Positions 6,675-62,609 of a stretch of 64,000 nt of DNA are shown here, in pieces. The translations under genes were made by a program, and so were the position numbers. Positions within the stretch are counted from its first letter, which is position 1. Each line of letters begins with the position of its first letter. The notes beneath the pieces were generated by a model. It was not told the DNA's origin. It searched no databases and saw only the letters and a program-made list of their open reading frames with translations. The DNA is taken from assembly GCF_000003815.2 (NCBI RefSeq), contig NC_049979.1:10703381-10767380 (forward strand). The letters are read 5' to 3'. This DNA is from Branchiostoma floridae. Its lineage: Eukaryota > Chordata > Leptocardii > Amphioxiformes > Branchiostomatidae.

Positions 6675-9069
6675 ATGAAGACTCTTCTGCTCTTCCTCTT
6701 TGTTGCGGTGGCTGCCGTCTACAGCCAAGTCCCAGAAAGATGCGGTAATGTTACACCTACACTAACTCCGTGCCTATTGGGATTATACGCTTGTGTTGTT
6801 TTGACCAAGGGAATTATATAATATCCCTAGCCTTGCATTGGTTTGATATGCTATGATTTTCTTTTTACGACAGTCGAACATGTGTTGTTTTGACCAAGGG
6901 AATTATATAATATCCATAGCTTTGCATTGGTTTGATGTGCTATGATTTTCTTTCTACGACAGTCGAACACAGAGAGCAACGACCCTGTTACAATAGCCCC
7001 TGTTTGTAGGCTTTCAATCTGAAAACTCCGTCAAGATACACTACCTTATGCTAGAAATACTTTGTTACTCCTAGGATGTATGGCGTGTTTTAAACTAAAA
7101 TATTTCGTTTTTAACCACAGAGGCACCCTCGGCGTTTGAGTCCAGAATTGGAAGAGTAAGTTCCATTCGATTTGTGTCGATCTAAAAAAGCTATGATATA
7201 GAATCGCTAATTTACTTCCAGTGCACCTACGACACCTGGCATCAGGTGATCTCAGATGGTCGCTGAGAGCAAAGACCAAGATCAGTAACTTGGCTCGAGT
7301 TCAAACCACGAAATGGGGCGTGGCGTAACAACGTGAGACCAGTCAATGGTAAACTACACACAGGGTGAGCAGGTGACTGTTCATTTCCATGTGCGTGGGC
7401 ATTATCCATGCACAGATTAGACGACAATAATTCTAGGCACGCCGCGCGGCAGAGACATAAACCTCCGTTTGATACAGCCAGACTTAAATTTTCGCGAATT
7501 CATATTGGCCCATTTTCTTTTCTGTTGTCCAGCTGGACACAATAAGGGGTTACTTCGTCCGCGGCAAGATGTCCTACGATGCTCGCAACATGCGGACCCG
7601 GATCGTCGAGGAGGTAGAAACCAGGGAGGACAAGGAGTACTACGATGTGCTTTATCTTCACAACACCCAACCTGTAAGTAGTGGGAGTGCTCTTCCAATC
7701 CAGAACTTGGTATCTTACTCTTTTTATCCTATCTCTACAGATGAGGAACTAAACTGATATTGGTACGATGAGATTTTCGTTTGTGTGTTGCCTGTTTTCA
7801 TTATCAGTATCTAGATTTGACTTTCTTCCACCATTTGCAACTCAACCCTTACCTTCCGTTCTTGCGACTCATACTCCAAGCAGATGCAGGATCCAGCTCA
7901 AGTGTTCTTGCGACGTTTATTATGTCTTTTAAGCTGTATGCCTTCTTGACAAGGGAGACTGAAAACACAGATTGCTAGGAAGAGATAAAAAAGCAAAATC
8001 ATGCCTACATCTACTTAAAGACTAGTGTGACTGGAGTTTCGCGTTATGACTTGGTTGATTCTATGTGATTTAAAATGTGCTTCAGGAAGTTTCGCGCCAT
8101 AACAAACATTCTATTGTCATCCTTTCGCTCGCCGCAGGGTAAGGAATACCGCTACAACTTGAAGACCAAGCAATGTGAGACCAGGATGCTTAACAACTCC
8201 TTCCGCCGGTTCGAAATCCCCGAAGACGCCCATCCCTTCGGAGAGTTCACCATCGGGACCAAGGGGCAGCCGGGCGAGGGAGTCGACGTCACCATGTGGG
8301 GAGGGCGGACGTCGATGGGGGGTAAGATTTTTGTCATTGGTCATCAAGACTCTAATGATAATGGTCATCATCCAGTTTCAGGAGAGAAAGCACGAGCCTG
8401 TAACGTCTCCCTCACTCCTCTCGATAAGTGTGTTGGGGTCTTTAACGTGCAGAGGTCTGATGCCCGAGGCTCTGCTTCCCCAAGTTGGGATTCGAACCCA
8501 GGACCTCTGGGTTCCACCCTATGCTTGAGAAGTGAGACCACACACAGCTCAGTCTGTGTTAACTTGTATAAGCTGTTAGAGATTGACTTACAACCCAACC
8601 TTCTTGTGTAGTGCTTTCTAGTAACTTAGGAACCTTGTTACAGGTGAGTTTGTTGGTGTCTTCACACTGGCTGGCTGTGTTCCTGTCAACGATCGCTACT
8701 TCCGCAACGAAAGCAGCTTTGACAATACAGAGTGAGTATTCTACATGTACAGAATTTGATACAATATAAGCCTATAGTACTTTTATGATGGGGAAGTGAC
8801 CCAACAGGCTTGTTCAGGATATTTCCCAGTCATCTGTGTTAAGAGTGGAAGAATTGCCAAAGTTGTCCTGTAGTCATATCACTCTTTTTGTTCTATGTAT
8901 GATTTTAGCCCCCAAATTTCAATTTGAAAAACATCATTGCCAGGAGTTCCAGATGATAAGGATATTTCTGCAATGACTGATGTCTTCTATCCTCCACAGC
9001 TTCTACGATGTGACCCTCGGCATTTCCAATGCCAGCATCTTCATTCCGCCGCATGAGTGTATGCCCTGA
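6675..9069 (+). CDS. EPDR: Ependymin-related protein, copy 3 (complete, diverged)
   Basis: Exons 6675-6744, 7121-7155, 7533-7673, 8138-8321, 8644-8731, 9000-9069; 588 coding bases, 195 residues. Exon lengths and phases match copy 2 except small changes in exons 1, 3, 5 and 6. Starts MKTLLLFLFVAVAAVYS, a signal peptide. Core blocks are conserved (GKEYRYNLKTKQC, GEFTIGTKG, FTLAGCVPVND, FYDVTLGISNASIFIPP), as are the four cysteines. Glycosylation sites differ (NNS, NES, NAS). The C terminus is only M-P after the last cysteine, with no polyproline run. This is the oldest branch of the three by divergence. A secreted glycoprotein role is inferred from the family; expression may differ from copies 1 and 2. 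Confidence 0.92.
6792..6969 (+). repeat. 89-bp tandem duplication in intron 1 of EPDR copy 3
   Basis: Units 6792-6880 and 6881-6969 differ at only a few positions (for example TATCCCTAG against TATCCATAG). There is no coding content. A recent local duplication. Confidence 0.9.
8380..8560 (-). mobile_element. tRNA-derived SINE in intron 4 of EPDR copy 3 (copy 2 of family)
   Basis: Read on the minus strand it carries a near-perfect Pol III B box, GGTTCGAATCCC (about 8487-8499), followed by GCACGTTAAAGACC and CCAACACACTTATCGAG. The last block links it to fragments near 3056, 16888 and 28945. The A-box side is degenerate. Ends are approximate; no target duplication was confirmed. Confidence 0.6.
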
Positions 9070-22240: not shown

Positions 22241-22774
22241 TGGTGTTGTTTATCGGCGGTGCAGCTGAGGTTGAGAATCAGGAAAAGCGTGGGACGATAG
22301 CCTTGGGCAGACCCTGGTGTTACTCAGACTACTCGGGCCGATTTCCCGTATGGATTGGGGTCCTTTACCGTCATGGCCCACTATGACGTGTCCTCAAGGT
22401 TGTGTCACTACCGGTTAAACGTCCATGTTTATTAATTCAGGAAGGAGTTGGAGAATTCACGTCTGTAAACCGGCAGTGCACACTGGTCCCAAGACTCCGC
22501 TGCTGCCAGTTCAACTGATCTCGGAGACTCGCCGAACACGTCCGTGCCTTGTTTACACTCACACGGCTCCATTTCCTCGACTCACCACGACCAGATACGT
22601 CTCTGTAAGTAGTCATATAGGTCAGATACTTAATCTACTTGCTTCGGACTCCCCAATCGCCTTTGGAAGAAGTACCTGTGTCCCAAAGTTGTGTCCAGTA
22701 CTCGACGGTGCATGTTAGAGTGCCCCCCTGCCGAGGGAGCCATTCATTCATGTCGCCTGCCATTGTTTTTCACG
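22240..22774 (+). promoter_or_regulatory. Probable 5' UTR/promoter of the inositol kinase gene
   Basis: Immediately upstream of the chosen ATG. The reading frame is open back to 22691 with another ATG at 22712 in poor context. No core promoter element was identified; the assignment rests on position. Confidence 0.35.
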
Positions 22775-25700
22775 ATGGCCAGCGGCAGGAGTGGCAGCAG
22801 AGGTCTACCCGACAGTAACTCGGAATCAAACTTGGAATCTCTGTGCAGTTCACGGAGGGAAAAACTACACAGGACCTGCTCCAACGGGGACATGTTGGAT
22901 TCGGACTCGTCCAAAGGCAAAGTTAAATTGGGGAACACCGGCAAGGCGTGGAAGAGTGTGGACGACTGCAGTTTTAGTGAGGTACAGTATTTGGCAGTAC
23001 CAGTGAGCAGGAGAAGAAGAAGCAGAACGCTATCAGAAATGGCAGAACCAAGACAGACAACTCCATCAGCAAATTGTAATGCAGGAATGACTCACGGGTT
23101 GGCCATACCTGCAGAACACGAAAGGCTTGTACGTAAACTTTCTAATGAATCGGATAAGGATGCTGGCTATGGCACCGACCCGGGAAGTCCAAGCCCTTGC
23201 AACTTTCTCAACAACAGCACCAAGAATGTGCAAGAAAACGCTGTCCAAACCTGTGGTGATGTAGATGCAGACTTACAGAATCACATGTTAACAGACTTGA
23301 ATGAGTCAGTTTCAGAAGAACCGTTGAACATGTCCCCCAACGAAATTGTTAGAAAATATGTTGGCACCGACTACCTTGATCCAACGACGCCACCAGCTAC
23401 AGTGAGCTTGGAAAGAAACTTGACTTTGCAAGTTGATGGAGTCATTGTTAACAATGACCAGACTCACGTTACTCCTGAAGTTATCATAAGTGACCACTGC
23501 AGTCCGGATAAGGACAACTGTCGGGTCATAAGTGATGGGCCCAACTGGGGTGTACATGTAGATTTGAATGAGGACGACATTCCACCAGACTATGTATACA
23601 GGAGGAAGTCTTCGAACACCAGCACCACATCCTCACAGTTCGACGACACAGAAGATGACCTGAGTGACATAGAACTAACGTTTCCACAACATGACGTTCC
23701 CCAGAAAAACAAGGTGAGTACAACAAGCGGATACCATCACAGATATTTCCAAGTCCAAACACATACTGTGTAACCTTGCAGTATACCAGATGTGTATCCG
23801 GCCATGGGAAAGGGTCACGCCATAACGTGGTGCCTTTCCTCTGACAGGAGTCAAGCCTGATTTAGCAAGGTTACAGATTATGTAAATAAGCTAAACCACC
23901 TTTACTTACAAGTACATGTATAATGTATGCTATAATAAGCCCTTTCACACAGATCAGAACGCATGTAAGGCGACAGGAATTCTAGGTTATTAAATATGTC
24001 AAAGGTAAGGCCCACAAAAAGTAAACAAAGTTGTTATGAAAATCGAAACAATGGTCGAGACAAGGACTGTTTCCTTCTTTGAGGCCTTTACCTTTGACAT
24101 ATTACCCAGAATTCCTGTGGCCACACATGCGTCCTGAACTCAGTGAAAGGGCTTATTGCCTGGGGGCACAAGGACTAGCACCTGACTAGATACAATAGAT
24201 GACCCGCCTCAGTACTTATAACTATTGATATGTGGTGACCATGATAATGACTATAATCATCATGATTGACCTTTATCTTAGGGAGGTTAAGATGATGATG
24301 ATGATGATGAGGGAGGTTTCAACTTTTTGATAGTGCAAAGAGCAGTATGACTCAGAGCCTACTATGAGTTTTCCCCCATAGAATTTATGTACCATAAGAA
24401 ATTGCTGGTTTGTATGACAAAAGGAAACTTCGTGCTTTTGTCGTCATGTATGTGTAGATATGTAATATTATACATGTAGTGTAAAATACTACTAAAATAT
24501 TTAAAGAAATAGAGAATGGAATTCTTACATTTTGACTTGCCCTGACCCCAGGAATCACTCAGTTTGCACTGGGGAAAATTTGTTCTCAACTTTGGCATGT
24601 TTCTTATCTTCTAAGTTCTAGTGAAATGTGACTGAATGGGCTTGTGATGTGTATGTTACATCTTGTGTATGATGGTTGTAGGTTGCTGGTGAGTGGTGCA
24701 TGATAACTAAAGAGGCGTGTACTACAGACTATAAATGACTGTACATTCACAGTGCAGCAATAAGATCGTGCTGTCTGATGCCAAATCTATTCTAGGACAG
24801 TCAATAATGCCTTTGGGCTGGTTATTAACGGAGCACCACTGTTGGCCTGACATTAGTAGAGACACTGGGTGTAATGCCAGCATTTTCGCTGGCTAGTGAA
24901 CTGGAAATCTTGAATTAACTAGCTTATCTAGATCCAAATTCAGCCATTATCATAAAAACAACTTCAATCAAGAAAGAAATATTAATTGAAACAGCTATGC
25001 TAATCATAAAACTAAAAGACGACCGTTCTGATGCATTTCAAACACTGCTTCTGGTACAATGAAAAGTTGTTTCAGTGGGACATGGTTCTTTTTGAAGTTT
25101 TTGTGTTCCTTAAAAAAAGTTCTTCCTTTGGTACCTGTTAGAAGTAGTGACTCACTTCACTCAAGGTTGAAGTGGCTTACTCCAGAAGATCCACCCCATT
25201 AACAGGGGTCCAAAAAGCATTAGTATGCTTCAGAGAACCTGCCCATACACCAAAGCCTTGCCTCTGTTTTTGTTTGCTGTACTAAGGTACACATTTTTCA
25301 GCAATAGGTTAACGGGTAGCATTCGGAGGCTACCATGCACATGATAGATGGACTCTATAGGTTAAATCACAACCTAATGCAAGATACTCGTAATGCAGAC
25401 AAGAAGCAATAATGCTGACTGCACAATTGTGAATGTTCATTATGTAGTTTGGGAGAGTGATCTTTCTCTGTAATAAAGAATTAAAGTCATTTATCTTCAG
25501 CTTTTATAACAACAAAAGCACACACCATATCAATCATACAATAGTCCCTGCCTTTTAGGTTCTATATGCACAGTTAATGTATCCTTTGTTCCATTTCCAG
25601 ACTCCATAGTAACAAAAATGCTTCTTATAGTACCACTAACACTAGTAACAGCTATGAAGGGCTTTTAGATGTGCATGTGAAGTTTTATTGTGTAATCATT

Positions 25701-34700: not shown

Positions 34701-37700
34701 AATCAGTCATAGATAGTATATGTTGCCATGAAATCTAAGTTTCTTCTTTTGAATTTCATTCTGAATTAAGGTATCATTGTCTTGAACGCCATTGAGTTAA
34801 TTGTGCATATCTGTCTGTTTCTTCTAATTGCATATCTTCGTGTGTTTGTTTGAGAAGTGGGAACTGTAGACTCACAGTTGAATGTGTCAGCTACCAGGGG
34901 TTGTCTGCTCTGCAGTGCCTTTAGTTTAATATCCTCTTCTACATTGTACATGTACCTGTAGCAGGACGTTGTGGGATTAAAGAATGTATTTTTCTGTTCA
35001 CGAGTCACAGTGATAATGTGGATAAGATATATGTAGGGTGTATGATTCACCCCATCCAGGGGAGCTTGCTATTTATAGAACCCAGGAAATACACAGGGTC
35101 AGTAGACGTGGAGGAATGCCACTTGGAAGGGAGCACTTCACTTGTTCTTAGAGGGGTGGTACACCACCTTGATTTATTCTTGTTTTATATTAGTCAAGTC
35201 ATCACTTATGTACCCACTCATTTTTCAACTTTCACCACAGTATTGGACCTATATATATTCTCATTGTAATGTTGGCATGTGTGGTGATGAGTAATGACTT
35301 GGGTTAGTTGGCAGGTCATGTAGAGAAGTCATGGCAGCACCTCCCCTTGGTCACGTTCTCCCCTCTTCGAGGATTTCCTGCCGGGTTTCTATGGGTTTGG
35401 TTACGTACTTCCTTGGCTGTTGTGACATCAGCGGTCCAGGCAGTTCCTCTGATCGCATGGCCCTGTGATGGTCCCCCCTGCTGCAGATACTGTTGGTGTA
35501 GCCAGAAGATTTCTAGCCAGCCCTGGAAGTAAAGGATGCTCCCAATGGTTGAAAAGATGTTCGCTGCGTTGCAGTGTAGATATCAGGACAAGCAGGTAGA
35601 GATTTTTATTATTCCTGCTGTTGCTTGTTTACGCTGGATTTTCCAGTATTGTGTTCGACTTTGCCTAGCAACTGGATGTACTCTTACTTAGCTTTGTGTG
35701 GGTATGTTTGGAGACGGGTAGTGAAAGTAGGGCTGGAGGTCCACTTAATTTTGCTTCTCTTTGGAGCTGTTAGAATAAAATTGAGCCAAATTTAAGGTGT
35801 TTGATGGGATAAGCTGTAAATGGTTGTGCGTTCATGGTGATTTAATTACGTGGTAAGGAGAACATAGAGCGTTCACTGTGGTTTTAGATTCACAGTACTA
35901 GTACTTGACTGTACAGTAATGGAAGCACCAGTTTAAAATTTCCAATGAAGGTTTACCTCATAGACAGTGGTCGCAAACATCAAACCAGCTTTAAAATTTT
36001 AAGAATTATAGTATTTGTCAGACACGAAATGTTCATATTTTGGTATTAACAGTTGAAAAAGGTAATCATCTGAATAGCTGCAAAAGATTTATCAAAGTGC
36101 CTACTACCAAATGTTAAAAACAAAAACAGCCCGTTGAAAGTGGCTGCCATTTCAGTGTGGGAATCGCATTTTACATGTTATACAAAATGTAGGTATATGT
36201 GTTCATAAGTGTAACATTGATTCTTTTCTTTTAACCAGACATATCAATTTTTTTTGTTCCCTACAGTCCCTTCAACAATGGAGAAAGATTCGAAACATGG
36301 TCCACTGGTCGCCGTTCCTTCAGTGCTTTAAGAAGAAGTACCCCTGGGTGCAGCTGGCAGGACATGCAGGTGAGGTAGCAATAAGGATGACTGAGCAAGA
36401 CCTTGTGCCAGTCTTGTGGTAAAAACATGCCACTCAACTGCTGATTGTCACTGCCATTTACAGCATTTTTAAGACTTTTGAACATGTAATAGGTAAAACA
36501 TTAGGATGCTTTATCCTGGCAAGTTGATTTGGTGTTGAAAAGGTGTAGCGCTATTTCGATACTAGTGCAATTTTGCAGTTTCACAACGACTTGTGTTTTC
36601 ATCCAAGCGCATTGGATCATCCCCGCATCTCTCTTTATACCTTTGGGGTCTGAAACAGCCTTGATATAATACTGTTTTCAGTAGAAATTGTACGGAAGTG
36701 AGACAGTTGTTACACACAGTGATACTTACAATCATGCATTATCTTACAGGCAACTTCAAGGCTGGAGAGGGAGGCACCATCTTGAAGAAACACTGCAATC
36801 GAGAGGCCAAGTGTCTGAAGAAGCTGATGGGGGACCTGCTGAGATCCTATGTCCCAGAATACAAGGGAGATGTGGAGAGGGACGGAGAAAGTATCCTTTC
36901 CAGATGCAATTGTGTTGTTCCATTCAGTGCTGTGTAGCATGATGTACATTGTACTGTAATTTGTAAAAATTTTGCAGTGGCTTTATGTTTGCAGATTTTG
37001 TGGTGACCTCTTCACATGAATCTGAAACCGGTGTTTGTACAAAAAAGTTACTGTAATCCTACAGTAACTGCAAACTTAAAAACTTTCCTCACACTCCATT
37101 TTCTCTCTGCCATAATATACAAACTTTGAGGCATTTACAGTACTGCTACGTACACAAATTTTGTTTTGAGAAGTATGAAGCCTTGATGTTTCACAGAACC
37201 ACCAGGATATTTGTTATGATAACCTAGAAAGTAATAGAAAATAGTGCTTTGATTGTTGTCACATGGCAGATGTTGAATTGGCCTTGTTATTTGGCTACAT
37301 TTGTTGCAGTCATGACATGTGTGACCAAGGACATACAAACAAGCAAAGGTGTCAGTATCAGAACAGTTCTTGCCTTCCGTATGCGTTACCCAAGTCCTGA
37401 AACTTTCTTGCAATTGCTTTTAGTATTACGTCAGCAAAACAGGCCTTTATTATTATGACAGTTCAGAATAAGACTGTGATATCCTATTCCATTGATCCTG
37501 TTGTGAGTTCCTTGATTCATCTGTGCAGAATTCATGGAGATGGAAGACCTTTTGGGAGACTTTGACACACCTGCTGTCATGGACTGTAAGATGGGCATCA
37601 GGTAGGACTACTACCATACTGCACTTATCAGTATATTCTCTTTTATTAACTTCATCTTCTATTGAGCTGTGCTACAATTTTTTACCTTGTTCACATATCA

Positions 37701-40700
37701 ATTAATACTTGCGGTTATCCTGTTAGACTTCAAAGTCTTTACTGACAAAAGATTGCGGTTGCTATCAGAATTGTGTGACCACTTGAAAAATTTATCCAGT
37801 TGCTTGAGTAACTCTTGTACATTATATTTAACTTGCTGTCTAACCTTTATCAGCGTCCTGTACTGTTCCGTTCTGTCTTTAGCCAATATATGAACTGGTT
37901 GATACATAATATAGCTTTGTGACCTCATTCTGGCCCTGCTGATTGTTGTAGATATGTAGTAGTATCCAGTATTTGATTATAGTGCTGCTTGAGTCCCTGA
38001 CACTGTGGTGGACAGCAGTCAGCTACATGGTGCTCCACACCTCCTAGAGTATTATAATCCTCTACATGTACGCGTAGCTCCATAGTGCTGCTGCAATATT
38101 ATTACCAATTGGATGGATGGGTCCTTGCTGTAGCATCTACTTTGTATATCTATTGTACAACTGTTGTTTGTACCCAGATGTCATTTGAGTTGGGAGATGA
38201 CAGTGCAAGGATGAATGGAAGATGGCAAGACTACACCATTTGATATACTGTCTATTCAGCTAGCTGAGCAGTATGGCTTCATGATGAGGATGAGGCCTTA
38301 TTTGACTTATCATATATATTGTTGTCATCAGGACCTACCTAGAGGATGAACTAGTCAAGGCCAGAAGCAACCCCAAGCTGAGAAAAGACATGTACCAGAA
38401 GATGATTGAGATCGACCCCACAGAGCCAACCAAGGAGGAGAACGCAGCGAAGGCTGTCACCAAACCTCGGTACATGGTGTGGAGGGAGAGCATCAGCTCC
38501 ACATCTACACAGGGCTTCAGGATAGAAGGCATCAAGGTTAGCACTGTGTGCACAATGTCTCACATTGAGTCATGGTAGGACAGATTTGACTATAGAAACA
38601 AGCTGTAGTGAAAAAAGTATGACACTTTGTCTCAAGTATAATTCTTTGAACTTGACTGAAGAGAGAGAGAAAGAGGAACATGTATTTTTCATTTTTGATT
38701 TGTGTGTAGTATTACAATGTACATGTATTTTTATAGTCACAACTGGGTCATAACATCATGGAAGCTCACCTGTGCTAGTGGTTAATCATAGTACAAATTT
38801 TAGAATTCCAACACTATCTTTCTTCAAAAACTTTCTTATCACGTGTCTGTACCTCTCACGAGCTTACGTTCTGAAGTGATTGGTCATTATAGATCCGGAA
38901 AGGGCGATGGTGGTTCTTCAAAATGTGATGTGAAGAACAATGTGAAGAAAGATTGGCTGTGATTTCAGTCTGGATAATGATTTAAGTCTTTGTTTCCTGT
39001 CTGGGTATTAACCTGAGGTGCTAGCATTTGCTTATCATGATTTGATAATATGATAGATATGATTATCATGATTGGATAATATGATTTCAGTACATCTTTG
39101 AAATGGAAAAGGAAGGGCAAGAGCACTGCATCATGTACTGNNNNNNNNNNNNNNNNNNNNNNNNNNNNNNNNNNNNNNNNNNNNNNNNNNNNNNNNNNNN
39201 NNNNNNNNNNNNNNNNNNNNNNNNNNNNNNNNNNNNNNNNATGGTCAGTCGAGCAGAGATTACAGATGACCAAAACAAAAGATCAAGTGGCAGAAGCCTT
39301 CAAGTTCTTCACTGATGGCAACCAGTCATTACAGGTAACTAACCACATACATTGTATGATGCTCTTGTTAGTTACAGTTGATTTACACTACAGACATGGT
39401 GTTTGTCCCGTCTGTGTAAAATAAAACTGGACAACCGGACATGTTACAACAGTCCCAGAATTCTGTTATGTAAGGCAGTTGGCTCATGTTGGGAGAGTTT
39501 GCTAATTTCCATGCAGATTTTTGGGATTTTTCGGGTGCAAAGTTGTAATAGTTGCAGATTGCCCCCCAAGATCTTTGGGAGCTGGGATGTCAGATCCTAT
39601 TGTGATTTTGCCCCCAAAGGTATGCTTGGAGATTAGGGGAATTTACTCCCATTCGTGCAATTTAAATCAAGGAAAGTGACATGGAAAGGCCCTGTTCATT
39701 CCAGGATTCACAAATTGAGATTCATCCAGGCACAGGATTGATCCTGATTTGATCCACTGAATCCACGTCCTGCGGTGGATTCAGCAGATCTGGATTAATC
39801 CTCCCCTCGGAGCAGGATTTGTACTGTTCAAGCCAGGATTTGCAAATTAAGCCTGTGCCTGGGTGAATGCAAATCCTGGTATGAACTGGGTCTTATGCAA
39901 GCGCTATTTCCCCATGAAGTCAATATCTACAGGTACTGTGAAAACAAGATAATACCAAACGCATACACATGTAAACATATTGACCAGGCATTAAAGGATA
40001 TTGCCATAAAGGAAAATGAAGTCTTTGTGTAGTGTAATCACAGAGATCCTTTTCAGGTGGACATTTGTGCATACCACAAATTCTATTCTATCTTCTTGTA
40101 CTCGTAATCAAAGAATGATTCACTTTCAGACGGATAAGATTTGCACCCTTTTGAGCTGCAACTCTCACGTTTGAGAGGGAGAAAAACATTCTGTGGAAAG
40201 CATTCCTGGATGTCATATTTTTGGGGCTGTGATGGTAATAATAAGTTAATCTGTTGCACCAAGTTCGAAAATGACTACTCCAGTACTGATGAATGTTACT
40301 GCAGTGCAACAGTCCAATGTAGTCACCTACATATTTGTTTCTTACAGAAAAAGTATGTCCAGAAGTTGATGGCACTGAGAGCAACACTGGAGAATTCTAC
40401 ATTCTTCCAAACACACGAGGTAAAAATTTTCTGCAACCTTCTTTTATTTTTTACAGTTGTCAGAGACTTTGATACTGCACTTTTGCCAAGAGATAAATCG
40501 TACTTGACAAGCTGATATTGACACAACTAAATGCACAACTTTTTATTGATGTTATGGGTTGACACGGGTCACAACTCAATGCCTGGGGCTGTAACACTTA
40601 CAAATTACATTGGTGTATGTGAGAGTTGTGGTAGGTAGCGTTTTGCTGAGAATAGCAAAGACCTTTGTTATCAAAACCAAGGACAACCACAAGGTGATAA

Positions 40701-41342
40701 CAAGGAGCAAAGAGAAATGTTAAGCTATCCCTTCATGTGGTGAATGAAAATCTGGGATGATTATGATTTGCAATGAGTATGGAGACTGGTGATGCACAAG
40801 AGAATAGATAAAGAACCCAATACAACAGTGCTGTGTTCACAAAGTCCAATATATGACAGCAATTTTCCAATGCTTAACCATAGGTATGAAAACTAATCTT
40901 TGGCCTGTGTGAAAGGTATTGAAACTGTTGCATGTTTTACTAATGAGTGAATTTTGTGGCTAGTTTAGAGCTACCATTGTTGTTCCACTGCAAATAGTGT
41001 TTATGCTTCACAGAAATCTCACCTTTTTATGTCTGGACCTAACTTGGAATAGCAAAATTTAAAAAAAATGTGTGCATTTTGATAAACCAAATTTTGTTGT
41101 TGTTTCAGGTGATTGGCAGCTCACTGTTGTTTGTCCATGACAAGGAAGGGAGCCATGTGGGCGTGTCTCTGATAGACTTTGGGAAGACAATGTCATTGCC
41201 GGAGGGACAGACCCTGGACCACCGGCTGCCATGGAAGGAGGGCAACCGGGAAGACGGGTATCTGTACGGCTTGGACAACATGATAGCTGTGTTCAACACT
41301 CTGGCAGATTGTGATGAACAAGACCTTGCAGAGGAGTTCTAG
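22775..41342 (+). CDS. ITPKA/B/C: Inositol 1,4,5-trisphosphate 3-kinase (ITPKA/B/C family), one exon in a gap
   Basis: Exons 22775-23713, 36267-36369, 36750-36890, 37529-37601, 38332-38536, one starting in the gap and ending 39334, 40348-40419, 41109-41342 (TAG). Start 22775 is chosen for its good Kozak context (A at -3, G at +4). Residues 1-313 are a Ser-rich, acidic, disordered-looking tail unlike any family I recognise. Exon 2 encodes the calmodulin-binding type helix ([14 protein letters not shown]) then [14 protein letters not shown]. Catalytic signatures: PAVMDCKMG (PxxxDxKxG), [17 protein letters not shown] and LIDFGKT with the metal-binding Asp, then [14 protein letters not shown]. 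The enzyme phosphorylates Ins(1,4,5)P3 to Ins(1,3,4,5)P4 in Ca2+ signalling. One gene apparently stands for the three vertebrate paralogs. The 5' end of exon 6, including an expected Asp-Gly loop, is lost in the 39141-39240 gap. Intron 1 is 12.5 kb. Confidence 0.93.
23936..24155. mobile_element. MITE with about 75-bp imperfect terminal inverted repeats
   Basis: Left end TAAGCCCTTTCACACAGATC and right end (GTGAAAGGGCTTA) are inverse complements; pairing continues inward through ACGCATGT, ACAGGAATTCT and ATGTCAAAGGTAA. TA on each side is consistent with a TA target duplication. No ORF. Confidence 0.8.
26467..26983. other. Assembly gap (517 N)
   Basis: Run of N in intron 1 of the inositol kinase gene. 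ORFs drawn across it have no meaning. Confidence 0.99.
27266..27620. mobile_element. Possible decayed hAT-like element
   Basis: The right end, ATTTCGAGCCCTG, is a typical inverse of CAGGGCTCGAAAT; the left end, CATGGCTCAAAG, is a degraded partner. Inside, ACTGGTGCA / TGCACCTA motifs recur inverted. Flanks TGTGCAGC and TGTGAGCA are only roughly alike. Confidence 0.4.
28076..28258. mobile_element. MITE with exact 9-bp target duplication (TGGCCTGG ends)
   Basis: GAGTCTACC occurs at 28067-28075 and 28259-28267, directly flanking an inverted-repeat unit: left TGGCCTGGATACCATCC, right GGATGGAACCCAGGCTA. Its ends resemble those of 29687-29819, which also has a 9-bp duplication. Nine-bp duplications occur in Mutator-like, Merlin and IS4EU transposons; I cannot decide which. 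Confidence 0.85.
28940..28990 (+). mobile_element. SINE fragment (copy 4 of family)
   Basis: GAAAGAACCCAACATACTTA followed by TTGAG and GTGTAGG matches the shared SINE block found at 3056, 8400 and 16888. The downstream end is unclear. Confidence 0.5.
29265..29345 (-). mobile_element. Probable retroposon 3' end with (AAAC)n tail
   Basis: On the minus strand, TTTGAGCTTCTCATGAATAA then ATAAAGGTTC runs into about five AAAC repeats. A unique segment followed by a short tandem tail is typical of a LINE or SINE 3' terminus. The 5' part was not delimited. Confidence 0.4.
29687..29819. mobile_element. Foldback MITE with exact 9-bp target duplication, 133 bp
   Basis: Perfect 24-bp terminal inverted repeats starting TAGCCTGAGTACCATCC. 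CATTAAGTC lies directly on both sides (29678-29686 and 29820-29828). The interior is itself a hairpin plus a direct repeat of GCGAAAGTAGTGAGCCAGCG, so the whole element can fold. Same end family as 28076-28258. Confidence 0.92.
31060..31345 (+). repeat. Local direct repeats with TTGCCAAAAATAGCAGT blocks
   Basis: TTCAGTAGTTTTGAACATTT and following bases recur about 190 bases later with changes, and AATTATCTTGCCAAAAATAG occurs twice at short distance plus a third diverged copy. A decayed segmental duplication in intron 1. Confidence 0.65.
31507..31718 (+). mobile_element. CpG-rich MITE, copy 2, in inositol kinase intron 1
   Basis: 212 bp from TACTGTA to TACAGTA, with repeated TTCGCGG. Nearly colinear with 44757-44968 and inverted relative to 16166-16370. 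Confidence 0.88.
39141..39240. other. Assembly gap (100 N) at a catalytic-domain exon
   Basis: Exactly 100 N, a conventional size for a gap of unknown length. The exon ending at 39334 ([15 protein letters not shown]) should begin inside it, because the stretch expected after RIEGIK is absent from both sides. Confidence 0.97.
39687..39893. mobile_element. Inverted-repeat element, CCAGGATTTGCA family, copy 1
   Basis: The left end (GGCCCTGTTCATTCCAGGAT) pairs with the inverse of the right end (ATCCTGGTATGAACTGGGTC). Related to 54092-54315. No ORF; target duplication unclear. Confidence 0.6.
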
Positions 41343-43938
41343 AGAGCAGAGGATGGATGTTCTCATAGGGATTTTGTACCACAGCCAGAGGCAAAGGGCA
41401 AAGAGAGCCAGCCTCATGTACACACAATGAACAGGACATGGTTGTTACAGAGGGCTGGATGTACAGTGAATCACTACAACTTGCTGATGATGGACAGTTT
41501 CAGCAGGAGTTGTGCAGCCGTTGGGTATTTTTACAGCTTTTTCTACAGGTCTCTATACAGGCAAAATGGTGTAACCAGGTTGGTATGATAGGCAAGGGGG
41601 GATGTCAGGAAGTGGGGCTTATAATAATAATGAACTATTTCAGTTACCTGGGGATGTATTGTTACTAGTACTGCCATGACTCTAAGTCTAAATAATAACC
41701 CACCTGTTACATTGATGTTGCTGATTGTGGCTGTCCTAGTGTGTGTATAGTTGAAGCAACAGGAGCTGGCTCCTTCGCTGGCTCACTTCCCCTCCTTTGG
41801 TTAAAGGTTATCTGCTGCAAGTGTGGAAATCTGGCATTTGATAGTCCTGTATTACCTGGATTAGATTAACTGTCAACTTAATGGAGGTAATATCAAATAA
41901 ATATGAGTTCCACTCTGTTACTGTTACATGTACATAAATGTACCCTTTGCTGGTAGTCATTAATATATTAATATATATCTTGATTATAACTCTGGATAAT
42001 TTTGGAAAGTGCAAGGGGCCATTATATACCATAACATTATGATATTCTAGGTTCAAAGATTTACCCAAGTAAAATTGTAGATTACAGCCAGTATTGGATT
42101 CAGAAATGATAAGGCATCTACTTAAACAACCACAATATGTTTTTGTATCTGAGGATAGTGATGTCGGTAGTTTTTTTGTAGGGTTAATCAGTAACTTGGT
42201 TGTGCTTTTGTTAATCAGAAAATGTCTAGGATCATCTTAATGTAAAATGTGTAAAAACATGGCAATAGTGATATATTCATTAGTGTTTCAGTATGTCAAT
42301 TTGAGTTGTATTTCACGTATAAACAAGTACAACACTGTGTCAATGTCAGTTGGCCATGTTATTGAAGCCATAAGCTTTGTTGAAAAACTGAGACTTGCAA
42401 CAACTGTACTCCACACGAGTGCACTTGAAATGGCCGTCTTCAGTTTCTGCTGTCATTAATATTAGTCTGTTTTTGTTTGCAGCTGTGTACTTGAATCTGT
42501 TCTATCCCTTTCTCAGTAACGAAATTTTTTCGGCTGGCTAAAAATCCTGTAATCTGTAAAGATACTCTGAGTTGACATATTCCCCATTAGCTTTTGATGT
42601 AAACACCTGCTCTAAATGCCAGCAATATCTGAAGGACACCTAAGGGTGAGGTGGATTTGTGGGGTTGTTACCTCAGGCACATGGCAAGTAAAAAGGTCAA
42701 AAGAAAGTTCATCTCTGACAGTTATTAGTCCACTTTTGGAAAGTCCTTTTTGCAGAAAGAGGTCCTGAAACAGTGACAAGTAAAGGCAGATGTGCAATTA
42801 AAGGCTTATGAATCTTTAACACCTGCATTCCATATATTGCTGCTGGTACCATTAATAGTTTTCCTTCATTGACACTATTCATGTGCTGTTTATTTCACAC
42901 ATTCTTCTTATTATTTTGTGTGTTCAGTTTGTAGATGTATTTCCCATAGACACTGCCTCTACATAGCATTCCATTTCATGCCCCATGTGTACATAAGCAT
43001 CATGTATGACACTTTCCATATTACAAGGAGTATTAAAACATCAGGTGTACATGGCTCTCCTGTCTCTATTATTTATGACAAGTTTATTACTGCAATACTT
43101 GTGAGCTGCAATTGTTAACATGAATTTTCAATATACTGTGCATATTTATGTAATACATAAACATGTTAATGCTCCTGTCAAGCTTAAATACATGTATCAT
43201 CATGCTAATACATTACCATTTTTCAACAAATGCAGTGCAGGAAGAGCCATAGCAACAAATTTTCATCAAATTTGCATTGAGGTAGAGGTCATTAATTCAT
43301 CAGAGCACAAATAATATTTGTCAGTATTAAGATGGCAAAAAATCCAAACATGTCCAGCTTTGTGCCTTGCAAATATATACAACTTGAAATAAATGAACTT
43401 TCAGCCCACTTTCTTGTTTGAATCAGTGCTTTTGCAATGCATTTATCAAAGGCCAAGCAGAATCAGTGGTCCCAACCCAAGACCACAAGTACACCAAGCA
43501 GATGGTGGTAGATCTAGCAGAAACTCATTTTAAGCTAGACACTCTACCCATTTGTCAGCCAGTTGCCACCAGATGTTCTTTACAGCATACCAGATTTTTC
43601 TTTCTCAAGGTAGATGTTGAAGATATATCTTCATCAGGAACTGTGCCAAGTCTTCTCCAATTATCTTGGGGAGTGAAAAATCACCTACACTGTGAAGTAG
43701 ACTTGTTTTGGACAAAACAGTGGTGTACGTGATGGAAGCCTCGTGAAGCCCTTCCAGCCTAGCTATAGTTACAATAAGTCGGGCAACTCAGTCAGATCTT
43801 GAGAAATAGTTGTGATTGTTTTGTGGTGAAATCTTGCCATGCTAACACAGCCGTGTTTTGCAAGTTGCATTACCAAGTATCCTGGAGTATATATAAAAAG
43901 CTTTGTAGCTTTGTGTGGATGAAAAGTCTAACTTTTAA
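41343..43938. other. Convergent 3' UTR region of the inositol kinase and propeller genes
   Basis: Follows the kinase stop and precedes the stop of the minus-strand propeller gene. AT-rich, with no gene recognised. It probably holds both 3' UTRs. Confidence 0.5.
43388..43393 (+). terminator. Candidate poly(A) signal AATAAA
   Basis: AATAAA about 2 kb after the kinase stop, before the convergent gene. Other near-matches occur closer (for example around 41896), so this choice is weak. Confidence 0.3.
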
Positions 43939-46900
43939 TCAAGCTTTCCAAATTGCAATGATTGAAGGTGAAGTGCTTCCTGCTCCACTGGTCTGTAGAG
44001 CTTGACTCCTACATGTTGATCCCTTCTTCTTTCCAGCACCAACCACCAAGATGGACTTAGCATGTGGAGTTAGATGGCTGGAAGATGCTGAAGAAACAAG
44101 TACATGTATCATCAGAAAGACAAATGAAAATTGGGTGAAATGCACAACAAGACGAATGGGAGTGAAAGTATAAAGACTGCGCACACTTGATAAGAGAGCA
44201 TTTTCAATGTTTTGACTGAGGAAAGTACCTGCATAGTGTAGCTTTCTTTGTTTAAAAATGGCTACATAAGAAAAAGTGTATTTACAAGTTGTGGATCATA
44301 ACAATAATTGTGGTAAAATCAGAAGTCAAATTGTCATTTGAAACTTCCACTGCTGCATACATCTGGTAAAAGTTGGCATTTAATTCATCATGGAATACCA
44401 TACTGATGACGCAAAGCAGAACAATGCAAGACCAATTAATTTGGGCCTGTATGCGTCAGCGTAGCATGCTACCCACCTGAATGTTGTACGCTGTTGAATG
44501 ACAAGAGGCAGCGAACATAGTTCTCAAATGGGCTGAACAATCGACACAGCTGGTGAGAGGCAGTGTTCCACACCAAGACAACACCAATGCCTGTACCAAT
44601 GTATCAGCAATATTTCAGCTATTGCAGTAGACTTTTTGGCTAGTATATCTGTAATATCTATATAGATTCGTTGTGCCCCATTTATTCCTGTGGCATCCAG
44701 ACAATTAAGGCTCTACTATGAAGTTAGCTTGTCTTGGGGCCTATTTTTTTTATAGTTACTGTAAATGCCTTTAATTTCGCGGGGATTTAATTTTGCGGTA
44801 GCGGGAAAATGGACTTTTTGCGGTGGTTTTAATTTCGCGGTAGCACCATGCACTGTAGTCTCTTAATGTTATGGAAAAATGTTCGCAGTGGTTTTAAATT
44901 CGCGGTGAAGCGGCCGCCGCGAAAACCGCGAACATTAATCCACGGCGAACATTTCTGCATTTACAGTAACATTATAAGATTTTCTGTTTTTATCCAGAGG
45001 CACAGAAAGGCAATATGTAGAGAGGCCTGTATCTATTCTTAAATCTATTGATAAATCAAGCAAGTGCAGATTTGAATACATGCCATCTTACCGTTAAATC
45101 AGGCAGACTACTGATTCAGAAACATCCTACAGAAGCCTGTCTAGAGGTTGTAATTGTTGCCATTCAGGGGACAACTAATTTCTACATTTGCCAATTCAAT
45201 ATGTTTATCGAAAGTATAACTAGCTGAAAAAATTGAAGGTGAATCACAGTTGCAAAAGTTAAGTTTCTATATAAATCATGATGTTGTTGAAAGTGATAGT
45301 CAATACTCATCTGATCTGCTAGATGGCACTCCTGATCATACCTTACACCCCATTCAACTGACAAGAAGCTGAACGATACACTTTGAGATATTTTGAACAT
45401 CATAACTTGTTGACATGTGGCCAATTGGAAGGGCTGGTACATTTATCTACCTATCATTGTTTACTTATGTACACTTTTGTTTATGTCAACTAGACAAGAG
45501 GAGTTCTCTGGGTTTGGTCATCTGCTCTCCAAGCAGAGGTTAGGCTCCAGTTGTTTTCTGATTTTTTTTAGACGTTTATATTGACCTATCATAAAGGGAA
45601 CGGTGCAAAATAGAAATCCTGATAAAAATGCCTAGAAAAATGTCAAAAACAGCTGGCGCCTAACCTCTGCTTGGAGAGTATTGAGAGTATTTTACCGCCT
45701 TTTTTTCTTGATAAAGCATTAGGAAATTTGATAAAAGAGGAGAAAAACTATTGAAGCGCCTATTGTACCTGTCCCGACCCAGACCTGGCCACATGAAGAC
45801 GTCAAACAGGTGATGGTCTCATCCTGCATCTTGTCGACTGGTGAAGAGGAGCACCTGTCCGACAATCTTCTCACCTGTGCACCACAGTCGTACATACTCT
45901 CTTTGTCTACAGTCATTGACGCACCTTTCCATCCTGTACAACAGGTGTGAAGTAGAGATTTTCATTGTTATTTCATTTCAGTCCTATTGTACAGATAAAA
46001 GTCAAGTGAGTTTAAGTATGTTTGATCATCATCATCATGCATCACTAGTTCACATCAGCCCTACAGTATTGGCTAGGGTTTAGCAGTCCTATTGGAGAAT
46101 GACAGCCTCTACCACATAAGTCACATCTGAAAATTGACTCAGTTCTATTACAAAGTTACTTTCTAGCGATCTGCTGTGCTGCACATCAGTCTAGCTTCTG
46201 TACAGACTTTATTGCCTCTTTGATCCAATACTGAGACTTTTAAAAAGAAAGTAGAGCTCTAAATTACTAACATCCACATTTCATAGATCATTCATGTTCT
46301 CATTCCAGGTGAACATAGTCCAGGCAAATAAAATCAGAGGAATCTAGACTGGTGCGCAGTACAGAAAAAATGCGCAGAAAAGAACTTTACAACAGACCCG
46401 AGTCAGCTTACAGATATGCTTTATGTGGCTGAGACTTTTATTTTGCACACTACTGTTAAAGTGTTAAGGATTTTTGCCATGGTCAATATAGATGTATATG
46501 ATGTTCTAAATGTACTACCTGTGACAATGCCACCACTCATGGTGCAGACAGTCCAGATCCTGTCTTCCTCATCACAGCTGTCCATCAGAAACACCTCATT
46601 TAGCTCATTCTGCAGCAGCAGGAGGAGAATGATCTCAGAGTCGAGAAGCAATCCAAACTTACCCAACATATAAACTGCCATGAAAAGTTCATTGGAAACT
46701 TCTACCAACTGTGAAATTTTAAGACTGAGAATATCTAAATGGGATGATCACTATTTCACAGGTACTAGTATTAAATGTCAATGCTGTAGACATATTCCCT
46801 CAAAGTCTGGAGGCATAAGTGAGAGGTTGAAGTTAAAGCTATCACTGCTTCTGTTCTGTTTCAACTTACAGAGATAGCTGACATGATAAAGCAACAATTC

Positions 46901-47529
46901 AGATGATAAACATTTCCCAACCGGACTTCAGAGTGAAAGCCAACCTCTGTATCTGCAAGGAGCTCCTTCTTACAGGTCCACTCTGTGGTTGTGTATACCA
47001 AGATCTTAGAACCTGCTGCCACCCACAGGTCATCTCTTACACACACCATAGCCTTGACTGGCAAGGGGCCACTTTTGCAAGCTGTCCAGTGGATGGGGGG
47101 TCTGTGAAGCAGCTCTGTGTGTAGACAGCACTTGACGGTCCCGGTGGCAAGACCAAAATACAAGTGAGACGAAGAGCAGGCTATGTTCTGTACCATACTG
47201 GGCATGATGTATTCCTCCAGTTGCCGATGTGTTGCAGCATCAAAGACGTTCAGCATGTCACATGTCTGTCCTCTAAAGCTGATCACCACACAGCCGTTAC
47301 AGTAAACCATAGTCTGGACATATGCGTCTTGTTTTGCGATCACATTCTCCTCGTCCCAGTCCTGTCTGGCAAAGTTATAGATGGCAATGGTGGTCCCCTG
47401 CACATCATAGCAGCCCAGCCACACCTCGCTCCAGTCAGTAACGATACAGCCACAGCGGGGACTCTGTTGGCAGGGCAGCAGCTTTCCGTCCTCCACCACT
47501 TTCAGGCTCCTGTCGAGAGACTGCTCCAT
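43939..47529 (-). CDS. Stand-alone LRRK/ROCO-type WD40 beta-propeller protein
   Basis: Exons in gene order: 47529-46870 (coding part), 46609-46519, 45933-45769, 44590-44477, 44087-43939 (TGA). They total 1179 bases, 392 residues; all four junctions are GT-AG with matching phase, which supports the model. Repeated propeller-blade signatures are visible: VWLGCYDVQGTTIAIYNF, VVISFRGQTCDMLNVFD, LYFGLATGTVKC, LWVAAGSKILVY, IWTVCTMSGGIV, VWVGTGIGVVLVWN, and a last blade ILVVGAGKK...IIAIWKA. Their order and the total length resemble, by eye, the C-terminal WD40 domain of LRRK kinases (about 390 residues in LRRK2). No kinase, ROC, COR or leucine-rich exons were found upstream. ATG 47529 is the first in-frame Met in its exon and has a strong context (G at -3 and +4). 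Other propeller families (DENND3, ARHGEF10/17) are possible. The function is unknown; a protein-interaction scaffold is inference. Confidence 0.62.
44757..44968 (+). mobile_element. CpG-rich MITE, copy 3, in propeller gene intron
   Basis: 212 bp, TACTGTA to TACAGTA, same orientation as 31507-31718. Several CG to TG changes (TTTTGCGG for TTTCGCGG) suggest methylation decay. It lies between propeller exons 3 and 4. Confidence 0.88.
45525..45678. mobile_element. MITE with 29-bp terminal inverted repeats
   Basis: The left end starts CTCTCCAAGCAGAGGTTAGG; the right end is its inverse complement with two mismatches over about 29 bp. 154 bp, no ORF, target duplication not clear. Loosely similar CCAAGCAGATGT phrases lie near 58962 and 59140. 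Confidence 0.75.
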
Positions 47530-47602
47530 TTCAGTTTCACCAAGCCTTTTTTTAACCTCCTTGGTTTCACTGAGGATCCTATTCCTCTTTGTCACCCCCA
47601 AC

Positions 47603-47625
47603 ACTACATCTTTGACATCAGGGGC
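47603..47625 (-). other. Short out-of-frame uORF upstream of the propeller start
   Basis: The first ATG in the exon (about 47618) opens a four-codon frame, M-S-K-M-stop, overlapping nothing downstream. It precedes the main start at 47529 and could lower its translation. Confidence 0.4.
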
Positions 47626-48252
47626 CTATGACCTATGGTTGAATAGATCAATCATTAATGTAGCATACAATCTGTCTTACCAGTAACAGCAATTCCTGTA
47701 TCAAATACAAGCAAACAAACAATTAAAGAAATAAATGCATGTTGTACAGGCAACAGATGAAAAGGAAACTGAATGTGACATAGTATCGCTGGTTGATAGA
47801 GTTTACGTTAAAATTAGAGGGCATGTTCCAAAACATTTATCTTTGTACATAAGCAGTTTGATGAGTCACATCCATGTTTATCAACTCTATATAGCCCTGC
47901 GGAATTTTTCCTGAAAAACACCTAAACACCTGGGGCACCGTTCTCACGTAGAATACTAAAAATCAAGTGAATCTCTTTTACAAGTAAGGCACAAAGTAGC
48001 AAAGAATGTAAGGGAATATTAAAAGCAGTAGGTCGAAAGGTAGTATATTCTATGATGGGTTGCAGGTTCATAGTCTCTGAAACCCCACGCTACTGTTAAT
48101 AATCAAGGTAGTGAAGATAACATATTTGGTATGTTCATCAAGGACATCATTTGACGTGTAACGTTACATGTAACAAGTTAAAGGGTAATGTGTTCAACCA
48201 TTTGTTCAACCGAACACTAATTTGTCCCTTTCAGCAACTATGGAATACTTAC

Positions 48253-48420
48253 ATATAAGCACTTTCCTAATTCCTTGGACTTCACTCCTTTGCTGTACTT
48301 TCGCTCCTTTGCCGCCGTCGGTCCTTGCTCTGTATTTGTCCCGTTTTAGGGGGCGTGTGTCCACTCACGTCTTCTGAGACCAGGCCAACAACTTCCGTGT
48401 TTTATTACGCGCCAAACAGA
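48253..48420 (-). promoter_or_regulatory. Candidate 5' noncoding exon and promoter of the propeller gene
   Basis: A strong minus-strand donor (CTTATAT then GTAAGT) at 48252, with CpG-containing sequence upstream and no in-frame ATG. A CCAAT box on the minus strand (ATTGG at 48451-48455) lies just beyond. Splicing to the acceptor at 47626 would join it to the coding exon. The 5' end is a guess. Confidence 0.45.
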
Positions 48421-49159
48421 TGGCCATACGCTATTCTATAACGCACGCTGATTGGTTAACTGAAGTTAGGGATGGTCCGGCTGTTCCATTTTATATCTTT
48501 TGTCTCCGTGCATTGTGCTTCCTTACCAGCTTTTGCAAAAAATCTGATGTGTTTTTATACAGTTATGGACGCTGTAAATAATAATTTGAATGTTTCAAAA
48601 CGCTTCAATGAGGTATCATTCCGCAGCATTGACTAGAGCACCGCATACGTATATGTAGAGAATATTTACGATGGGTGATAATACAACCTGGAACAGCCAA
48701 AGTAATGTCAGAGGTCAGCAGCTTTCCGGCCGGCCATCTTGGTAAGGGGACAGCCGATAGTAGCGAGCAAACAACGCTCGGCTGTTACATTTCAAAGTCT
48801 TTTCCTCTGTTTATATTGTGTGGTATTGATCATTTCCACGCCCGCACATGTAACCAAGCGTGTGAGGACGCTTTTGATGATACACAAGTTAACGTGAGGA
48901 AGAACAACAGACGGAACAGGGCTCCCAAATCGCACTGCAAGCTGGTCGTGTCGAGATCGCACCTGGAACAGATATCGGCTGCTGAAGGTGGTATCCAGCC
49001 CTTAATCATCCAAGTTGGAATTTTACTGTAGACCTCTTACTCACACTGCCTGTCTACAAGACGTCCAGGCGACTTAAGTTTCCTAAGACTTGTCGTCTGG
49101 TCTTGATTAGGATTGGAACTGATCGAGGTTTGTGTCTGACAAAATCCGGATAGCTAGCT
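48421..49159. promoter_or_regulatory. Shared promoter region between the propeller gene and CCDC85
   Basis: The two genes are head to head: the candidate propeller 5' exon is at about 48.3-48.4 kb and the CCDC85 ATG at 49160. The region is less AT-rich than its surroundings. A 118-codon ORF at 48675-49031 has no conserved features and I read it as CCDC85 5' UTR or chance. Confidence 0.45.

Positions 49160-62609
<13,450 letters not shown>

What the first reader, a model, noticed from the sequence alone, without database searches (positions are those of the whole stretch)
43939..47625. LRRK-like beta-propeller encoded as a separate gene without kinase or GTPase domains
Five phase-matched exons give 392 residues that look like the LRRK/ROCO C-terminal WD40 domain from its first blade (VWLGC) to its last (IIAIWKA). 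In known LRRK proteins this domain follows ROC, COR and kinase domains. Here the frame upstream of ATG 47529 is open only to the acceptor at 47626, the candidate 5' exon has no in-frame ATG, and CCDC85 starts within 2 kb. Either the propeller became independent, or the rest was lost or rearranged.
Basis: partly seen in the sequence, partly recalled or inferred. Interest (0 to 1): 0.72.

Follow-up and report, generated by a model that had tools for sequence, protein, structure and literature searches.

The report
Stand-alone divergent LRRK/JIP-type propeller gene
A small lancelet-like animal gene encodes only a ring-shaped docking domain of the kind normally found at the end of big signalling proteins such as LRRK2; it looks like a real gene of its own rather than a broken LRRK2, since the same genome carries an evident LRRK2 elsewhere.

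Summary
Five canonical, phase-matched minus-strand exons (47529-43939) encode 392 residues with seven blade-like motifs. Pfam finds two propeller families above cut-off: WD40_2 (30.7 bits) and Beta-prop_LRRK2 (29.7 bits). The domain appears to stand alone. Upstream is a CpG-rich gap shared head-to-head with CCDC85. A Pfam scan of about 71% of the upstream minus-strand frames found no kinase, Roc or COR. The last strand ends at the stop codon, without the C-terminal helix that LRRK1 and LRRK2 share.

The label "LRRK" is only partly supported. The genome's evident LRRK2 (pieces of Roc, COR-A and kinase, then the propeller and C-terminal helix, in order on another contig) scores 209.6 bits on the LRRK2 model. 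A non-LRRK propeller (WD40_2 114.9 bits) also passes that model at 33.4, more than the window gene. In pairwise tests the window protein is equally close to LRRK2 (z 7.3) and to a JIP3/4-like propeller (z 7.4). It is a divergent, single-domain member of the LRRK2/JIP/ARHGEF-type propeller group, most likely a soluble docking protein, not a remnant of a lost LRRK. Expression, structure and orthologues could not be tested. Interest is moderate to low.

The parts
46870..47529 (-). coding exon 1 (ATG 47529): blades 1 to 4 and the stretch after them
   Evidence: open frame of 254 codons
47530..47625 (-). 5' untranslated part of the same exon, splice acceptor before 47625; holds out-of-frame ATGs (47618, 47609)
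46519..46609 (-). coding exon 2
   Evidence: canonical splice sites, phase fits
45769..45933 (-). coding exon 3
44477..44590 (-). coding exon 4 (with the VWVGTG/IGVVLVWN stretch, most like LRRK2 and JIP)
   Evidence: PF23748 17.3 bits in the six-frame genome scan, under the cut-off
43939..44087 (-). coding exon 5, last blade and stop; no C-terminal helix
48253..48380 (-). probable non-coding first exon (donor AT|GTAAGT at 48253/48252; 5' limit guessed)
   Evidence: inference, no transcript data
48200..49399 (.). CpG-rich head-to-head interval, likely shared promoter with CCDC85 (CpG observed/expected 0.95-1.0 in three 400-base steps, 0.45 for the whole window)
   Evidence: inference
43083..43088 (-). 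candidate polyadenylation signal AATAAA
   Evidence: consensus match only, one of three such matches between 42000 and 43939

Best explanation
This is a functional, single-domain gene. It encodes a seven-bladed beta-propeller of about 43 kDa (mass estimated from length) that is a divergent member of the propeller group shared by LRRK2, JIP3/4 and ARHGEF10/17-type proteins. It has its own promoter, probably shared head-to-head with CCDC85. It carries no catalytic domain, so it most likely works as a soluble docking platform that binds partner proteins on the rim or top of the ring, as the LRRK2 propeller can do when expressed alone. Shown here: the gene model by sequence, the relationship to two propeller families, no detected LRRK domain in the upstream frames scanned, and an evident LRRK2 elsewhere. 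Inferred: the fold, the promoter, expression, the docking function. Which of the larger proteins it descends from is not resolved.
For: Intact spliced frame with coding composition. PF19056 WD40_2 30.7 bits at residues 111-196 and PF23748 29.7 bits at 237-366, both over their cut-offs, repeated on residues 1-206 (29.1) and 197-392 (32.8). Seven b-strand-like motifs at residues 36, 80, 123, 168, 238, 301 and 356 (chosen by eye). CpG-rich interval towards CCDC85. Upstream minus-strand frames: no family over its cut-off, one chance match at E 0.088 (3,366 of 4,722 letters of 71 frames of at least 45 aa; shorter exons would be missed). LRRK2 present on C5: Roc piece 17886457 (33.1 bits), COR-A piece 17889215 (33.1 bits, under its cut-off of 35.3), kinase pieces 17894108 to about 17895900 with YRDLKPDNIL and DYG (PF00069 105.4 bits over model positions 107-258 of 263), propeller 17903595-17907490 (209.6 bits on joined pieces; best solved match human LRRK2 6dlo E 7.4e-28). 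The isolated LRRK2 WD40 domain dimerises in solution (PMC6358694, passages) and alters vesicle fusion when expressed alone (PMC5511190, passages).
Against: No transcript or protein evidence was available. Structure prediction from one sequence failed (mean pLDDT 33.5), so the fold is not confirmed. phmmer found no solved structure at E up to 10. No orthologue in another animal could be looked for, so conservation is untested. ATGs in the leader could lower translation. In the six-frame genome scan the window's own exon scores only 17.3 bits on PF23748, under the cut-off.
Confidence: 0.65

Rival explanations
1. A partial duplicate of an LRRK gene: the LRRK propeller alone was copied, lost the C-terminal helix, gained a promoter, and acts on LRRK2 itself by pairing with its propeller.
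For: PF23748 over cut-off (29.7 bits); residues 197-392 hit LRRK2 only; local alignment with the C5 LRRK2 propeller running in order over window residues 87-318, z 6.6 and 7.3.
Against: Equal scores with WD40_2 and with a JIP-like propeller; a non-LRRK propeller scores higher on the LRRK2 model (33.4) and is nearer to the C5 LRRK2 (z 10.2); no C-terminal helix; by tblastn against the C5 pieces held, 36% over 25 residues at E 0.036 at best.
Confidence: 0.2
2. A stand-alone derivative of a JIP3/4, ARHGEF10/17 or similar propeller rather than of LRRK.
For: WD40_2 is the top family (30.7 bits) and the only one in residues 1-206; 12 of 21 aligned residues identical with the JIP-like gene on C7, z 7.4; like the C7:11588158 propeller it ends right after the last strand.
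Against: Residues 197-392 prefer the LRRK2 model; z only 2.2 with the C7:11588158 propeller; the JIP-like match is one short stretch.
Confidence: 0.2
3. The 3' end of a larger gene whose upstream exons were not recognised.
For: The frame is open for 32 codons upstream of ATG 47529 to a splice acceptor.
Against: CpG-rich interval and CCDC85 within 1.6 kb; no kinase, Roc or COR family in the upstream minus-strand frames scanned (about 71% of the letters); the nearest Roc piece listed on C1 is 5.8 Mb away (150 of 370 candidates scored); the candidate first exon opens no long frame at the junction.
Confidence: 0.06
4. A recently dead copy (pseudogene).
For: Strong divergence from the relatives found; ATGs in the leader.
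Against: 1,179 nt open, all splice sites canonical, raised GC at third positions.
Confidence: 0.04

Closest known systems
LRRK2 C-terminal WD40 propeller (Pfam PF23748; human 6dlo; this genome C5:17903595-17907490)
   Same: Local alignment in order over window residues 87-318; same model passed; VWVGTGIGVVLVWN against LWIGTGGGHLVLVDA.
   Different: No Roc, COR or kinase; no C-terminal helix; 29.7 bits against 209.6 for the genome's own LRRK2.
WD40_2 (PF19056) propellers: JIP3/4-like C7:8792763-8794250 and ARHGEF-like C7:11588158 (names recalled, not from a call)
   Same: WD40_2 passed at residues 111-196; VWVGTG stretch as close as LRRK2's; ends at the last strand as C7:11588158 does.
   Different: Members that I know of are C-terminal parts of large proteins (TEM4/ARHGEF17: PMC3404065, passages; the rest recalled); only 86 of 488 model positions match.
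LRRK1 propeller
   Same: Same general fold expected (inference).
   Different: LRRK1 has a ~112-residue loop in its penultimate blade (PMC10643122, passages); no two neighbouring blade motifs of the window protein start more than 70 residues apart. No LRRK1 propeller was available for comparison.
Single-domain WD40 proteins in general
   Same: One propeller, no other domain.
   Different: No ordinary WD40 model passes its cut-off; only WD40_2 and Beta-prop_LRRK2 do.

Membership tests
LRRK (Roco kinases) | Roc GTPase domain | tested here: not met
   No Roc in the 392 aa; nearest Roc piece listed on C1 is 5.8 Mb away (150 of 370 candidates scored); none in the upstream frames scanned (part).
LRRK (Roco kinases) | COR domain | tested here: not met
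   COR-A scan: 84 matches at E<=0.001, none in the window; nearest C1:10922729, about 155 kb past the window's end.
LRRK (Roco kinases) | Kinase domain before the propeller | tested here: not met
   No kinase family in the 392 aa or in the upstream minus-strand frames scanned (366 of 4,722 letters).
LRRK (Roco kinases) | C-terminal helix after the propeller, shared by LRRK1 and LRRK2 (PMC10643122, passages) | tested here: not met
   Zero residues after the last strand here; 34 residues in the C5 LRRK2 (that they form the helix is inferred).
LRRK2 propeller domain (PF23748) | Pfam score over the gathering cut-off | tested here: inconclusive
   29.7 against 26.9, but a WD40_2 propeller also passes at 33.4, so passing is not specific.
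LRRK2 propeller domain (PF23748) | Closer to LRRK than to other propellers of the group | tested here: inconclusive
   z 7.3 with LRRK2, 7.4 with the JIP-like propeller; 2.2 with the ARHGEF-like and 1.1 with the C9 propeller.
WD40_2 propellers (PF19056) | Pfam score over the gathering cut-off | tested here: inconclusive
   30.7 against 22.5, 86 of 488 positions; the C5 LRRK2 passes too at 47.1, so passing is not specific.
Seven-bladed beta-propeller | Seven blades of four strands | tested here: inconclusive
   Seven motif positions chosen by eye; predicted structure useless, pLDDT 33.5.
LRRK2 propeller | Dimer formation through blade V | not testable with these tools
   Needs protein; alignment too weak to map the interface.

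The most novel reading that the evidence does not exclude
The gene is a free-standing propeller that regulates LRRK2 in trans: it pairs with the LRRK2 WD40 domain, or competes for its vesicle and cytoskeleton partners, and so acts as a natural counterpart of the isolated LRRK2 WD40 construct used in cells.
Probability: 0.07. Interest if true: 0.7.

Novelty: new variant of a known kind. Interest (0 to 1): 0.33.

Why it matters
The LRRK2-type propeller is known mainly as the tail of a Parkinson's kinase. A gene that uses a propeller of this group alone, in a genome that also has LRRK2, would show that the domain can work by itself and would give a natural test of what it binds. If it is only one more divergent WD40 protein, it is a modest annotation point. 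It also shows that a Pfam 'LRRK2 beta propeller' hit near 30 bits should not be read as LRRK membership.

Tried and rejected
Remnant of a broken LRRK: rejected, because pieces of Roc, COR-A, kinase and propeller lie in order on C5; the kinase N-lobe and anything before Roc were not read. Roc hits at C3:12149218 and C7:24842752 as LRRK candidates: rejected, they read as Rab GTPases (Rab11-like and Rab9-like are recalled names). Twenty stretches around further Roc pieces: among the 32 loci then held no tblastn match to the window protein was better than E 2.1, and I found no LRRK there by motif; several read as Rabs. LRRK1 origin: no long loop, so not favoured. COR piece C1:10922729 as a linked LRRK: it reads like an ordinary Roco COR (my reading); with 84 COR pieces in the genome I give it no weight. 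Structure prediction from the single sequence was useless, so no fold search was run. NCBIfam: one chance match at E 0.064, far under its cut-off. Rfam: no match in the window at gathering thresholds. Marin 2008 is not held. In one search the third piece was typed with wrong leading residues; I ignore its row.

Full report
WHAT IS THERE. The window is G000:C1:10703381-10767380 of a 513.4 Mb assembly in 431 contigs. Size and gene style fit the lancelet Branchiostoma floridae; that name is recalled and comes from no call. On the minus strand five exons (47625-46870, 46609-46519, 45933-45769, 44590-44477, 44087-43939) splice into one open frame. From ATG 47529 it encodes 392 aa. Introns are 260, 585, 1,178 and 389 bp, all GT-AG. 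Coding GC is 0.50 with 0.56 at third positions, against 0.37 in the introns.

BOUNDARIES. The next gene upstream is CCDC85 on the plus strand (PF10226 50.5 and 200.6 bits on two exon pieces), with ATG near 49160 (my reading). In 400-base steps CpG observed/expected is 0.97, 0.95 and 1.00 from 48200 to 49399, against 0.45 for the window, 0.60 at 47800-48199 and 0.31-0.36 at 47000-47799; a CCDC85 exon at 49800-50199 also has 0.92. That fits a shared, divergent promoter but does not prove it. A strong donor lies at 48253/48252. Joined to 47625 it makes an ATG at the junction in another frame with a stop after seven codons (read). Downstream there is an AATAAA at 43083-43088, then a plus-strand gene that ends near 41340 and reads as an inositol polyphosphate kinase (one exon, PF03770 17.7 bits, below its cut-off of 22.2).

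WHAT THE PROTEIN IS. Pfam gives WD40_2 30.7 bits (residues 111-196, cut-off 22.5) and Beta-prop_LRRK2 29.7 bits (237-366, cut-off 26.9) and nothing else over its cut-off. Scanned apart, residues 1-206 hit only WD40_2 (29.1) and residues 197-392 only LRRK2 (32.8). Seven b-strand-like motifs lie at residues 36, 80, 123, 168, 238, 301 and 356 (chosen by eye). Against solved structures phmmer finds nothing at E up to 10. AlphaFold2 on the single sequence failed (pLDDT 33.5).

IS IT AN LRRK? The same genome holds a much better LRRK2. PF23748 scans find C5:17903595-17906449 (101.9, 42 and 24.5 bits by exon, the last under the cut-off). Joined pieces score 209.6 bits and match human LRRK2 at E 7.4e-28; of 22 sequences listed at E up to 1, 19 are named LRRK2, 2 only serine/threonine kinase, and 1 is a bacterial sensor kinase at E 0.075. 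Upstream lie kinase exons with YRDLKPDNIL and DYG (PF00069 105.4 bits over positions 107-258 of 263; the N-lobe was not looked for), a COR-A piece at 17889215 (33.1 bits, under the cut-off of 35.3) and a Roc piece at 17886457 (33.1 bits). After the last strand this gene has 34 more residues that look like the C-terminal helix; the window protein has none. LRRK1 and LRRK2 share that helix (PMC10643122, passages).

SPECIFICITY CONTROL. A propeller at C7:11588158, clearly WD40_2 (114.9 bits), also passes the LRRK2 model at 33.4 bits; the C5 LRRK2 passes WD40_2 at 47.1; a piece at C9:10191878 reaches 23.9 on the LRRK2 model, under the cut-off. So a score of about 30 on either model marks the group, not the family. 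Pairwise scores against shuffled sequences, window protein with: C5 LRRK2 z 6.6 (300 shuffles) and 7.3 (1,000 shuffles); human LRRK2 fragment 5.3, C7:11588158 2.2, C9:10191878 1.1, an ordinary WD40 piece at C1:9219344 0.6; the JIP-like propeller at C7:8793457 7.4. The C5 LRRK2 with others: human LRRK2 49.4, C7:11588158 10.2, C9 6.3, C1:9219344 4.2, JIP-like 7.1. So the window protein is no nearer to LRRK2 than propellers that are not LRRK. The alignment with the C5 LRRK2 runs in order over window residues 87-318. The labels JIP-like and ARHGEF-like are recalled.

OTHER COPIES. WD40_2 in the own genome gives 13 matches: 5 at C14:9530715-9535741, 3 at C7:8792763-8794250, 3 at C7:11588167-11589670, 1 on C8, and exon 1 of the window gene itself (25.3 bits). 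PF23748 gives 7 matches, the window's exon 4 last with 17.3 bits. No close second copy of the window gene appears in either list; a direct protein search of the genome did not complete.

HOW IT PROBABLY WORKS. With no catalytic domain, a propeller of this size most likely docks partner proteins. Support is by analogy only: the isolated LRRK2 WD40 domain forms dimers (PMC6358694, passages) and, expressed alone, changes vesicle fusion; synapsin and actin bind LRRK2 mainly through it (PMC5511190, passages).

IN PRINT. Seven searches combining LRRK2 or LRRK with amphioxus, Branchiostoma, Roco, WD40, cephalochordate, DENND3, ARHGEF10, JIP3, JIP4 and isolated WD40 (rows listed 20 of 159, 15 of 296, 12 of 14, 1 of 1, 10 of 83, 8 of 8, 6 of 48) listed no paper whose title or abstract start reports a stand-alone LRRK-type propeller gene. 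I read passages of six papers and only listings of the rest. The library lacks most subscription papers, including Marin 2008.

VERDICT. It is a divergent single-domain member of the LRRK2/JIP/ARHGEF-type propeller group, moderately interesting at most until expression and conservation are shown.

Noticed in passing
window 36270-41342 (+): Inositol polyphosphate kinase-like gene (limits by eye; one exon PF03770 17.7 bits, below cut-off), with a 100-base run of N at 39141-39240.
   Followed up: partly
window 8069-8611 (+): Ependymin-family exon (PF00811 51.6 bits).
   Followed up: no
window 22634-23773 (+): Longest of the open frames listed, 379 codons, no Pfam match at E 0.01.
   Followed up: partly
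G000 whole genome: Very many Roco pieces: 84 COR-A matches, in clusters on C3, C14, C18, C6 and C191, many in single long open frames: looks like a large Roco expansion in this genome.
   Followed up: no
L042 (G000:C1:10922601-10923400): COR-A piece (36.1 bits) about 155 kb from the window's end, on the other strand from the propeller gene.
   Followed up: partly
L041 (G000:C7:8791701-8795200): In the JIP-like propeller gene a CA-rich repeat with three near-copies of one exon fragment (QHLQDVDIEPYVSKMLGKS) in one frame.
   Followed up: no
L040 and L034 (G000:C5:17898218 and 17904095): Much the same translated stretch occurs twice between the kinase exons and the later propeller exons of the C5 LRRK2 gene, likely a repeat element.
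   Followed up: no
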